Below are positions 29,945 through 33,442 of a stretch of DNA of 41,077 nucleotides, in pieces. Position 1 is the stretch's first letter. The number at the start of each line of letters is the position of its first letter. The translations under genes and the position numbers were made by a program. The stretch spans positions 1 to 41,077 of the forward strand of contig JAPHTQ010000058.1 of NCBI GenBank assembly GCA_026196275.1. Direction: 5' to 3'. Below the pieces are notes generated by a model. The model did no database searches. It worked only from the letters and a program-made list of their open reading frames with translations, and was not told the DNA's origin. The DNA comes from Gammaproteobacteria bacterium (GTDB taxonomy: Bacteria; Pseudomonadota; Gammaproteobacteria; Thiohalomonadales; Thiohalomonadaceae).

Positions 29945-30142
29945 CTCACCGCAAAGGCGCAGAGGACGCAAAGTGGTTTCTGCTGTCATGCAGGAGCGGC
30001 TTCCAGCCGCGATTGCTCTGGGCATCGTGCCTGGGAAGTACTCCTCTGCAACAGTCACAACACTCTTTGCGCACTTTGCGCCTTCGCCTACATGGAAGTA
30101 GGCGAGGAGCGAGAGCAGGACGCGGTAAGCTTTGCGGTGGAT
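29945..30142. repeat. Intergenic palindromic repeat, copy 5 (lgt-GST, convergent)
   Basis: The left arm is CTCACCGCAAAGGCGCAGAG with GACGCAAAG. The right arm (30062-30142) carries the hairpin CGCCTACATGGAAGTAGGCG and ends GCTTTGCGGTGGAT just before the GST stop. The right arm is almost identical, inverted, to 19725-19803. The roughly 90 nt between arms hold nothing recognisable. Confidence 0.75.
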
Positions 30143-30741
30143 CATTCTTTTTCTAACCCCGGCATGGAGATATAGCCGGGGAGGGCTTCGATGCGGGCCA
30201 TCCAGTCGCGGATCGGCGGGTAGGGGTCGAGCGGCACGCCGCCCTCCGGCAGCAGCGCCACGTAGGGGTAGCAGGCGATGTCGGCGATGGTCGGTTTCTC
30301 CGCTGCGAGCCAGTGGTGCTCCTCCAGCCGGTGTTCCAGCAGGGCCAGACCAGACTCGGCGTGCATCTGGGCGCGGGTCAGATCACCCGCCACCCCCAGC
30401 TTTTTGATCCGCCGCGCCTGCGCCGCGCCGTATTGCAGTTCATCGGCGGCCACCGCCAGCCACTCTATCACCCGTGCGCACGCCAGCGGACCATCCGGCA
30501 GCCACTGCGGCCCGTAGCGCCGCGCCAGATAGGTGAGGATCGCCATCGAATCGGCGATACGTTCACCCTGATCCTCCAGTACCGGGATCTGGCCGCGCGG
30601 GGAGATCGCATGGAAGGCCGGAGTTCGGGTCTCGCCGTTGAGCGAATCGATGAAAACCGTCTCATACTCCTTGCCGAGCAGCGCCAGCAGCAGTCGTACC
30701 TTGTAGCAGTTTCCGGAGATGGGGTTGTCGTACAGCTTCAT
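30142..30741 (-). CDS. Glutathione S-transferase family protein
   Basis: A 199-residue two-domain GST. The thioredoxin-like domain starts KLYDNPISGNCYKVRLLLALLG, with Ser/Asn/Cys near the glutathione thiol; the glutathione gamma-Glu motif is GERIADSMAILTYLARRYG. The helical domain ends KPTIADIACYPYVAL, with the N-capping Asp conserved. The substrate is not known. The coding frame is intact. The ATG begins the motif ATGA, and the 54 nt before it belong to the right end of the IscB element: no purine-rich ribosome site lies in the last 16 nt. A good AAGGAG site is found on the far side of the element. Translation is therefore probably weakened in the present arrangement. Confidence 0.9.
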   Translation of the reverse strand: MKLYDNPISGNCYKVRLLLALLGKEYETVFIDSLNGETRTPAFHAISPRGQIPVLEDQGERIADSMAILTYLARRYGPQWLPDGPLACARVIEWLAVAADELQYGAAQARRIKKLGVAGDLTRAQMHAESGLALLEHRLEEHHWLAAEKPTIADIACYPYVALLPEGGVPLDPYPPIRDWMARIEALPGYISMPGLEKE

Positions 30742-30758
30742 CAGTTTTGCGCGAGAAA

Positions 30759-30778
30759 CCCCGCCGTTCAGGGTGGGG
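30759..30778 (-). repeat. Right-end hairpin of the IscB element
   Basis: On the leftward strand, CCCCACCC-TGAAC-GGCGGGG forms a stem of about 7 bp, 17 nt before the proposed element end. It shares CCCCACCCT with the hairpin at 32426-32443 near the left end. It is the expected position for transposase recognition in IS200/IS605-type elements and might also stop transcription from iscB, though no T tract follows. Confidence 0.6.
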
Positions 30779-30795
30779 AGGGATTGCGCCCGCCA

Positions 30796-32166
30796 TCAGG
30801 CGGCCTGGGTTCTCGCTTCCTCCTTTTTGGTTGCCGCTATCTTTGGTTGAACGGAATAGCCATAGCCGTCGGCACGCTGAATCAGGCGGCAATGGCGGTG
30901 GCTGATCCCTTGAATGACGCCTGCCTGTGTCTGAATGTTGAAACTGCCGCTGGCGCGGACGGCGATCCGACCGGTGTACGTACCGATTTTCTTTCCGCTC
31001 GGCACCACCGCCCGGACGTGATCGCCGGTCTGAAAGCCCTGCACCTGCTTGCTTCGCGCCAGGTAACCACGGGGAAACCCGTGGCGTGTCAACCAGGTGC
31101 GTTGGTAACTGCCTCGCCCCGCTGCCTTGATGGAGAGCACCGGACGCTCCCAGCCCTCGACATTATTCACTTCGCCGACACAGGCCGCGTCCAGGGCGTG
31201 GTCCTTGGGGATCCCCAGACGCTGACGATTCCACTTCGTTCGCCCGCCGGTGCCGGCCTCCACCGGCAACGTCGTTGCCGTGAGGGCCCGGAACAGTGCC
31301 CAGCGGGTACTGTTCACGGCGGCCGCATCCTTCAGGCTCGGGCGCTGGCCGGCGTGGATGCGTTCGGCGCTGGCGACCCGTGTTCTATCCAGCTTCTTCC
31401 TGGAGCCGCCCAGGGCCTGCGCCCACTCCCCGGCGGAACGGTTGTTTTTCACCTGGTTGCAATCCCGGCAGGCGACCACCAGGTTGCCGATGCGGTTGCT
31501 GCCACCCCGGCTTCGGGGCAGGACATGCTCCAGCTCCAGCACCGGATCGCCGGACAACCCGGCACAGTAGGCGCATTGGTGTTGGTGCCGATGCAGGAGG
31601 TATTCCCGAACCTCGGTACCGAACAGGGTGCCTCGTTGGTACTCGATACCGCTGATCCCCGTGTTTTCCATCTGCTGCATGTCGAACCGCACCAGCTCCT
31701 GGCTGATCGCCGTGACCGGCGCCCGGCGCCGTAGCCGATCCACCCAGGCCATGGTGGTATCGACCCGGTGTTGCAGGCTGGGGGCGAGCCAGCCCTTTGA
31801 CCGGGTACGGTTCTCAAAACGCGGTGCGCGGTGACGCAGCTGGCCCCGGCGGCGACGCCGAAACGCACGCCGCTGCGCCAGTCGATCCCGGATAACCTGC
31901 CCCCGGTGGGCGATTTGACCAAACCACAGCACATGAGTGGTGCCATCGGTACCCTCACGCATCAACGCCACGCCAGTGGTGCGGCTGCCCGGGTCGAGTT
32001 TGAGTCGCACCGGCTGGGTGTCGCCACCCACCCTATCCTTTAACCGGATAGTGAACGGATGAACCCGCACCACCACCGCCCGGTCACGCTCCAACAGCAG
32101 CCGTGCCCGCTTTTCCGAGCACGGCATCAACGGTTGTTTGTGCTTGTCCAATACGAATACGGCCAT
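30796..32166 (-). CDS. iscB: IscB RNA-guided nuclease
   Basis: A 456-residue IscB, the family from which Cas9 descends. The N-terminal PLMP domain has PLMP at 12-15. RuvC-I is LKLDPGSRTTG with Asp58. An arginine-rich bridge helix follows (RDRLAQRRAFRRRRRGQLRH, about 93-112). RuvC-II is ISQELVRFD with Glu157. The HNH domain has zinc-type cysteines CAYC (198-201) and CRDC (233-236), with catalytic His214 in LELEHVLPRSRGG and Asn228 and Asn237. RuvC-III is KDHALDAACVG with His323 and Asp326. A C-terminal RNA/target-interacting domain runs from about 345 to the end. All catalytic residues are present, so it should cut both strands. ATG at 32166 has GGAG 7 nt upstream and gives MAVFVLDKHKQPLMP; an ATG 39 nt earlier is less likely. 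Confidence 0.95.
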   Translation of the reverse strand: MAVFVLDKHKQPLMPCSEKRARLLLERDRAVVVRVHPFTIRLKDRVGGDTQPVRLKLDPGSRTTGVALMREGTDGTTHVLWFGQIAHRGQVIRDRLAQRRAFRRRRRGQLRHRAPRFENRTRSKGWLAPSLQHRVDTTMAWVDRLRRRAPVTAISQELVRFDMQQMENTGISGIEYQRGTLFGTEVREYLLHRHQHQCAYCAGLSGDPVLELEHVLPRSRGGSNRIGNLVVACRDCNQVKNNRSAGEWAQALGGSRKKLDRTRVASAERIHAGQRPSLKDAAAVNSTRWALFRALTATTLPVEAGTGGRTKWNRQRLGIPKDHALDAACVGEVNNVEGWERPVLSIKAAGRGSYQRTWLTRHGFPRGYLARSKQVQGFQTGDHVRAVVPSGKKIGTYTGRIAVRASGSFNIQTQAGVIQGISHRHCRLIQRADGYGYSVQPKIAATKKEEARTQAA

Positions 32167-32169
32167 GGC

Positions 32170-32467
32170 GGATCTCCGAATTACTGCCCTTACGGGCCTT
32201 GTCACGCGGGGCTTGTGCCCCCTCTCCCCTCGGGAATGTCACGAACCGGCTCCTGCCTTGGGGCAGCGGTGGAAACCTTCGGCGCTTTACCTTTCGCCAG
32301 CATGATCTCCATCTTCCAGAGCCCGGGACTGAGGAAGCATCCCGGAGTGGGTCTTGACGACCTGTTCGTAACGTAGCGGGTTGGTTACCGCTCTCCCTGG
32401 TCAACCCAGCTTGCTTCTACAAGCTCCGCCCTTTAGGGTGGGGTAGTTGACTCTGGCTCCTTGCCTG
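32170..32467 (-). ncRNA. Omega RNA (HEARO) with 5' guide
   Basis: Directly upstream of iscB lies a GC-rich region with nested helices, as in HEARO RNAs. GTCAAC (32446-32451) pairs with GTTGAC (32400-32405). Inside are a hairpin around CCCTAAAGGG and the stem-loop AGCTTG-TAGAAG-CAAGCT (32408-32425). Further on come CCGGGA/TCCCGG (32322-32346), GGCG/CGCC near 32290, and GCCCGTAAGGGC close to the iscB start. Family guides are about 16 nt at the 5' end; here that would be CAGGCAAGGAGCCAGA (32452-32467), which lies outside the element. Exact 5' and 3' ends are not determined. Confidence 0.85.
32457..32462 (-). promoter_or_regulatory. Orphaned ribosome binding site of the GST gene
   Basis: AAGGAG on the leftward strand lies 5-6 nt outside the proposed element end. 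No start codon follows at a usable distance. If the element is removed, it lies 5 nt before the ATG of the GST gene, which now lacks such a site. Confidence 0.6.
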
Positions 32468-32485
32468 TGGCGGTGCCCTGTTCCA

Positions 32486-32491
32486 AGTATA
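32486..32491 (-). promoter_or_regulatory. -10 box for the omega RNA, probably the original GST promoter
   Basis: TATACT on the leftward strand lies within an AT-rich patch (TTTAAATGGCTATATACT). A start about 7 nt on, near 32479, would begin a transcript with about 28 nt before the element, enough to include the guide. No good -35 is visible. If correct, a chromosomal promoter outside the element drives the RNA. Confidence 0.5.
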
Positions 32492-32519
32492 TAGCCATTT
32501 AAACAAAAGGCCGGGTGAG

Positions 32520-32525
32520 TATAAT
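32520..32525 (+). promoter_or_regulatory. -10 box for thyA
   Basis: TATAAT, a perfect -10, lies 38 nt before the thyA ATG. The -35 region (ATTTAA at 17-bp spacing) is poor. It faces the leftward TATACT 28 nt away, so the thyA and omega RNA promoters are divergent and overlap in their upstream parts. Confidence 0.5.
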
Positions 32526-32563
32526 GGTGCAACGGTCAGGCAGCCAATAACAAGAGGGGAGTC

Positions 32564-33442
32564 ATGCGCCAGTATCTGGAGTTGATGCAGCACGTCCTGA
32601 ATAACGGGGTTACAAAGGAGGACCGTACCGGCACCGGTACCCGCAGCGTGTTCGGTTATCAGATGCGCTTTGACCTTGCCGAGGGCTTCCCGCTACTGAC
32701 CACCAAGAAGGTCTTTCTACGCGGTATTATCCATGAGCTGCTCTGGTTCCTTGCCGGTGATACCAATATCAAGTACCTGGTCGATAACAAGGTGGGGATC
32801 TGGAACGAGTGGCCGCACGCCAACTACGTCAAGCAGACCGGCGAGGCGCTTCCCCTGGAGGCCTTCGTCGAGCGCATTCGCGAAGATGATGAATTTGCTG
32901 AAAAGTGGGGTGGTATCGGCCCCGGTTATGGCCACCAGTGGCGCTCCTGGCCGACGCCGGATGGGAGGCAGATCGACCAAATCTCTCAGGTTGTGGAGCA
33001 GATCAAAAACAATCCCGACTCACGCAGGTTGCTGGTTTCCGCCTGGAACGTGGCCGAAGTGGAGAACATGGCACTGCCTCCCTGTCACACCCTGTTCCAG
33101 TTCTATGTCGCTGATGGCAGACTCTCCTGCCAGCTCTACCAGCGCTCGGCGGATATCTTTCTTGGGGTGCCGTTCAATATCGCCTCCTATGCATTGCTGA
33201 CGATGATGGTTGCCCAGGTCTGCGACCTCCAACCGGGGGATTTTGTGCATACCCTGGGCGATGCTCACCTCTACGCCAACCACCTGGAGCAGACCCGCGA
33301 GCAGCTTTCGCGCAAGCCCTTCCCGCTGCCGCGGATGAAGCTCAATCCGGCGGTGGAGGATCTGTTTGCCTTCACCATCGATGACTTCGAGTTGCAGAAC
33401 TATCAGTGCCACCCGCCGATCAAGGCACCGGTGGCGATATGA
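32564..33442 (+). CDS. thyA: Thymidylate synthase
   Basis: A 292-residue enzyme that methylates dUMP to dTMP with methylenetetrahydrofolate. The catalytic nucleophile is Cys174 in [12 protein letters not shown]. Other conserved parts are the N-terminal [11 protein letters not shown], the dUMP-binding [18 protein letters not shown] and the C-terminus ending PIKAPVAI. It is longer than the 264-residue E. coli enzyme owing to an insertion around residues 88-118 seen in other ThyA proteins. AGAGGGGAG precedes the ATG. folA follows, so synthase and the reductase that regenerates its cofactor are paired. Confidence 0.97.

What the first reader, a model, noticed from the sequence alone, without database searches (positions are those of the whole stretch)
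30742..32451. Complete IscB element with intact nuclease and adjacent omega RNA
The 456-residue IscB keeps every catalytic residue I can place (Asp58, Glu157, His214, Asn237, His323, Asp326) and the PLMP and bridge-helix regions. The 5' side carries a HEARO-like structured RNA. IscB proteins are RNA-guided nucleases ancestral to Cas9; many genomic copies are decayed, this one looks functional. No tnpA or CRISPR array is present, so it is a stand-alone guided nuclease unit held in a housekeeping neighbourhood (lgt-GST-thyA-folA).
Basis: partly seen in the sequence, partly recalled or inferred. Interest (0 to 1): 0.85.

Follow-up and report, generated by a model that had tools for sequence, protein, structure and literature searches.

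The report
IscB jumping gene at start codon
This is an intact, multi-copy bacterial jumping element that carries a guide-RNA-directed DNA cutter (IscB, of the family that gave rise to Cas9), and it has inserted exactly between a host gene's ribosome-binding site and its start codon, a habit that relatives in many bacteria share.

Summary
Window 30742-32451 (minus strand) is an intact IscB element: a 456-aa IscB with all RuvC/HNH residues, and a full-length HEARO/omega RNA (107.7 bits; gathering score 83). It is not stand-alone. The same genome has ends of at least two more copies, broken at contig ends. dN/dS against them is 0.19-0.25.

All three copies lie between a Shine-Dalgarno (SD) and the ATG of a co-directional gene: GST here, tolQ, and a TlpA-like thioredoxin. 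The guide position is thus the host 5' leader, and the TAM-side flank is the start codon (ATGA). In 92 distinct homologous insertions, 91 abut ATGA or GTGA; 49% fall in gene-start zones against 6% of control RTGA sites. Proteobacterial start-zone left flanks keep a stranded SD in 62%, against 18% of random stretches. Half of the cyanobacterial/Chloroflexi right ends carry their own SD.

Best reading: a selfish element that takes its guide from a host promoter and leader and would re-cut empty alleles at the start codon. Cutting, transcription and translation are inferred. I found no report of this in the papers held here, which lack the key ones.

The parts
30742..32451 (-). Whole IscB element, 1710 bp; left end at 32451 (GTCAACTACCCC), right end at 30742 (CGCGCAAAACTG)
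   Evidence: Ends common to the three copies of the genome with unrelated flanks; copy comparison in other genomes ends at the same place, after the abutting ATGA/GTGA
30796..32166 (-). iscB, 456 aa, RNA-guided endonuclease, stop codon included
   Evidence: dN/dS 0.25 and 0.19 against other copies
32218..32451 (-). HEARO / omega RNA scaffold
   Evidence: RF02033, 107.7 bits, full length
32452..32467 (-). Presumed omega RNA guide, CAGGCAAGGAGCCAGA: host DNA, the GST leader with its Shine-Dalgarno AAGGAG (32457-32462)
   Evidence: sequence; guide position from established IscB knowledge
30742..30795 (-). Right end with hairpin (arms about 30759-30765 and 30771-30778), between iscB stop and GST start
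   Evidence: sequence; conserved in relatives
30738..30741 (-). ATGA: presumed target/TAM and start codon of the GST gene
30142..30741 (-). Captured host gene, glutathione S-transferase family, 199 aa
   Evidence: Pfam GST_N from residue 1 and GST_C
32518..32547 (-). Promoter-like site outside the element, pointing into leader, omega RNA, iscB and GST (TTGGCT-18-TATACT)
   Evidence: consensus scan only, 9 of 12 matches; the only minus-strand site in 30600-32650

Best explanation
An intact, multi-copy IscB/omega-RNA (OMEGA, ISC-type) insertion element without its own transposase, inserted 5' of an ATGA that is a host start codon, between SD and ATG of a GST gene and in the same direction. The omega RNA scaffold begins at the left end of the element, so its guide must be copied from host DNA outside it, here the GST leader. 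Inferred steps: (1) the host promoter makes a leader-omega RNA-iscB-GST transcript; (2) IscB binds the omega RNA with a guide of about 16 nt from that leader; (3) the occupied site is not cut, because the insertion has moved NTGA away from the guide; (4) an empty allele (guide + ATGA) is cut at the start codon and repaired from an occupied copy, so the element is kept. Shown: anatomy, element ends, copy number, start-codon placement, stranded SDs and their enrichment in relatives. Inferred: host-promoter transcription, cutting, retention, and how the captured gene is still translated.
For: Intact IscB and omega RNA; purifying selection; at least three copies with common ends; each copy at SD|ATG of a co-directional gene; tolQ empty sites in 14 relatives; 91 of 92 insertions abut ATGA/GTGA, 49% in gene-start zones against 5.9% of controls, odds ratio 2.6 against intergenic sites alone, P 6e-5; stranded SD in 23 of 37 against 18%; RefSeq starts at the right end; only promoter-like site on this strand lies outside; guide + NTGA has no other site with 0-1 mismatch, and the occupied site has lost NTGA; relatives' measured TAMs are NTGA/NTG (PMC9581776).
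Against: No RNA or cleavage data. No TnpA in the held genome, so the copies may be immobile now. The window's right end has no SD and the iscB stop lies 54 nt before the ATG, so it is unclear how GST is translated. Half of the homologous insertions are not in start zones. The promoter call is a consensus match only. Pairing of the broken copies is partly inferred.
Confidence: 0.7

Rival explanations
1. Start-codon placement is only a by-product. The element inserts 5' of any RTGA, insertions inside genes are purged, and gene starts (ATG or GTG followed by A) are common harmless RTGA sites. Promoter capture plays no part.
For: 91 of 92 flanks are ATGA/GTGA whatever the context; 30 of 92 insertions are intergenic and 17 scored internal; co-direction of non-start intergenic insertions is only a weak trend.
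Against: Start zones are enriched 2.6-fold over intergenic RTGA sites; half of the cyanobacterial/Chloroflexi right ends carry an SD and 13 of 67 proteobacterial-type iscB stops overlap the captured start, which looks like adaptation to that position.
Confidence: 0.4
2. Degenerate or immobile relic: the element no longer moves or cuts and persists by chance.
For: No cognate TnpA in the held genome; three copies are diverged from each other (dS about 0.3-0.6).
Against: Intact ORF, all catalytic residues, intact omega RNA; dN/dS 0.19-0.25 against other copies.
Confidence: 0.2
3. Stand-alone, domesticated guided nuclease of the host, kept for a function of its own.
For: Intact protein and RNA, no tnpA beside it.
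Against: Other copies at unrelated sites of the same genome with the same ends; no IscB match at E below 1e-20 in other members of the family searched.
Confidence: 0.05

Closest known systems
IscB-omega RNA systems (OMEGA; ISC-type elements; HEARO RNA and ORF), e.g. TbaIscB, OgeuIscB
   Same: Domain order, catalytic residues, HEARO scaffold 5' of iscB, sparse association with tnpA (PMC9755519)
   Different: Nothing in the parts themselves; the start-codon position between SD and ATG is the new observation
IsrB elements
   Same: Omega RNA with 5' guide; measured TAMs NTGA, NTG or NTGG, i.e. start-codon-like (PMC9581776)
   Different: IsrB lacks the HNH domain and nicks; the window protein has HNH
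TnpB of IS200/IS605 elements
   Same: RNA-guided nuclease with a guide read from the flank; proposed role in keeping the element
   Different: TnpB guides lie 3' of the omega RNA; IscB guides lie 5', so transcription has to begin outside the element (established knowledge plus inference)

Membership tests
IscB (RNA-guided endonuclease) | Family model above curated cut-off | tested here: met
   NF040563 406 bits against 175
IscB (RNA-guided endonuclease) | PLMP, bridge region, split RuvC (D, E, H/D) and HNH residues | tested here: met
   D58, E157, H214, N237, H323, D326, PLMP 12-15 invariant
IscB (RNA-guided endonuclease) | Omega RNA / HEARO scaffold directly upstream | tested here: met
   RF02033 107.7 bits at 32218-32451 (-)
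IscB (RNA-guided endonuclease) | RNA-guided cleavage with a TAM | not testable with these tools
   Needs biochemistry; flank motif ATGA is consistent with NTGA TAMs of relatives
IS200/IS605-type ISC insertion element | Defined ends, several copies, insertion at a fixed short motif | tested here: met
IS200/IS605-type ISC insertion element | Own or resident TnpA (Y1) transposase | tested here: not met
   None in the element; the two Y1 proteins of the held genome are REP-associated-like. Non-autonomous, mover unknown
Cas9 / CRISPR type II | Cas9 model above cut-off | tested here: not met
   Cas9 models 24-48 bits, far below their cut-offs; a CRISPR array was not searched for separately

The most novel reading that the evidence does not exclude
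IscB elements are start-codon parasites: their RTGA target is the bacterial start codon, insertion splits SD from ATG, host promoter and leader then supply both transcription and guide, and lineages have evolved ways to keep the captured gene translated (right-end SD in about half of the cyanobacterial/Chloroflexi ends; iscB stop overlapping the captured start in 13 of 67 proteobacterial-type insertions).
Probability: 0.45. Interest if true: 0.75.

Novelty: new member of a known kind. Interest (0 to 1): 0.55.

Why it matters
An IscB guide lies 5' of the omega RNA, outside the element, so the element cannot make a guide from an internal promoter. Landing between a host SD and ATG would solve that: the host promoter and leader make the guide, and the start codon is the recognition motif. 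It would explain why IscB/IsrB flank motifs look like NTG(A), why these elements sit co-directionally in front of genes, and raises the question of how genes such as tolQ or parB tolerate a 1.7-kb insertion in their leader. Each step can be tested with RNA-seq, a cleavage assay and translation reporters.

Tried and rejected
Stand-alone or domesticated locus: rejected by other copies with the same ends. Resident TnpA: the two Y1 hits are REP-associated-like, one with a DnaA C-terminal-like stretch; among eight genomes rich in related copies one (G105, 4 copies) has no Y1 hit at all. Promoter inside the element: none by consensus scan (weak). Empty GST site in relatives: only two distant GST homologues, without thyA or lgt in the stretch read, so tolQ was used instead. 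Translational coupling as a general answer: the iscB stop overlaps the captured start in 13 loci only, and in the window it lies 54 nt upstream. Right-end RNA folding: not unusual. Co-direction of non-start intergenic insertions: weak trend. E. coli genomes: no match. A script on new loci failed on a record name and was rerun. In one search the mean energy of the control is meaningless (failed duplexes); only its fraction is used. Key papers (Altae-Tran 2021, Kapitonov 2016, Weinberg 2009, Meers 2023) are not held.

Full report
Observation. The ORF at 30796-32166 (-) encodes 456 aa and is IscB by NCBIfam (406 bits, cut-off 175), Pfam (RRXRR 230 bits, HNH) and sequence match to solved TbaIscB and OgeuIscB. 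D58, E157, H214, N237, H323 and D326 are invariant in an alignment with relatives at 60 and 48% identity. A full-length HEARO RNA lies at 32218-32451 (-), 107.7 bits against a gathering score of 83.

It is a mobile element. The genome (2.54 Mb, 88 contigs) has two further IscB 3' parts, both at contig ends (C79: residues 280-456; C69: 359-454; about 86% identical), and two further HEARO 5' parts, also at contig ends (C79:1-226, C35:1-226). Assemblies break at repeats, so this points to at least three copies. All left ends start GTCAACTACCCC and all right ends finish CGCGCAAA(A)CTG followed by ATGA, with unrelated DNA outside. dN/dS between the window copy and the other parts is 0.25 and 0.19. 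Of 95 genomes searched, own included, 3 hold an IscB at E below 1e-20.

Where it sits. In all three copies the DNA right after the right end is a start codon: GST here, tolQ on C79, a TlpA-like thioredoxin on C69. The DNA before the left ends finishes in AAGGAG-CCAGA, GGGGAAGG-TTA and CTGGAG-TATCGA, i.e. Shine-Dalgarno sequences at start-codon spacing once the flanks are joined. Which left end belongs to which right end on the broken contigs is inferred: ruvB is next to the C35 left end and tolQ next to the C79 right end, and ruvB lies shortly before tolQ in 14 relatives without the element; in the two closest the spacing is 167 and 89 nt, against 153 nt in the joined flanks. The third pairing follows by elimination.

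Generality. A scan of genome contigs gave 80 relatives (the best of 472), HEARO was located by Rfam, and further copies were taken from multi-copy genomes. Comparison of copies within a genome puts the end of identity at, or within a few bases of, the ATGA or GTGA in nearly all cases, without my assuming the motif. In 67 loci with a defined right end, the abutting ATG opens an ORF of at least 100 aa in 44 (66%), against 21% of 2975 control ATGA sites. In 92 distinct insertions the flank is ATGA in 86 and GTGA in 5; 45 lie in gene-start zones (49% against 5.9%), and against intergenic RTGA sites alone the odds ratio is 2.6, P 6e-5. In proteobacterial start-zone insertions 23 of 37 left flanks carry an SD against 18% of random stretches (P 1e-8). 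RefSeq annotation of plasmids, made by others, places the downstream start exactly at the right-end ATGA in 6 of 15 records (including parB, between parA and parB); one more starts one codon upstream (ATGATG) and one at ATGG. These loci are related and partly from the same genomes, right ends were found by motif and in part by hand, and my gene caller is crude, so the sizes matter more than the P values.

How the captured gene may be kept on. Proteobacterial right ends have no SD (1 of 70), whereas 11 of 22 cyanobacterial/Chloroflexi right ends have one at the proper distance, e.g. CCTGGAGGTTTAG|ATGA and CAAGGAGGTAGAAAG|ATGA, inside the element by copy comparison. In 13 of 67 proteobacterial-type loci the iscB stop overlaps the captured start codon (TGATGA or ATGA), and the same is annotated in three plasmids. 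For the window neither applies; translation of GST there is an open point.

Mechanism. The guide of an IscB omega RNA is the sequence just 5' of its scaffold (established knowledge), which here is host DNA: CAGGCAAGGAGCCAGA. The only promoter-like site on that strand in the scanned stretch lies outside the element at 32547-32518. I infer that host promoter and leader make the guide; that the occupied site is safe because GTCA, not NTGA, now follows the guide (one search shows this site and no other with 0 or 1 mismatch); and that empty alleles would be cut at the start codon, which keeps the element. IsrB relatives have measured TAMs of NTGA, NTG or NTGG (PMC9581776), which are start-codon-like. 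No transcription, binding or cutting has been shown here.

Known or new. The element is a new member of a known kind. Sparse TnpA association is already reported (PMC9755519). Integration 5' of ATGA/GTGA is, from memory, part of the original HEARO description, which I could not read. I found no report of start-codon capture, stranded SDs or element-borne SDs in the papers held, but the main papers of the field are not in that library, so novelty of the pattern is not settled.

Noticed in passing
L007 (genome contig C7:20046-20381): A REP-associated-type Y1 transposase protein carries a C-terminal stretch that matches the DnaA C-terminal region.
   Followed up: no
L203 (Trichormus variabilis plasmid): An IscB element sits between parA and parB of a plasmid partition operon, with the annotated parB start exactly at its right end.
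   Followed up: partly
L173, L174, L175, L120 (Scytonema): A subfamily of IscB elements abuts GTGA instead of ATGA, so the preferred initiation-codon-like motif differs between subfamilies.
   Followed up: partly
G105 (genome of L011): Four IscB copies in a genome with no Y1_Tnp match at all; what moves these elements is unknown.
   Followed up: no
G109 and G105 copies (e.g. L127, L135, L142): Many near full-length copies show one in-frame TAA within the stretch matched by the query; one search suggests it is their ordinary stop, with the similarity running on beyond it.
   Followed up: no
H32, H33 (Microcoleus and Nodularia phage records): IscB homologues at 41-46% identity lie in cyanophage genomes.
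   Followed up: no
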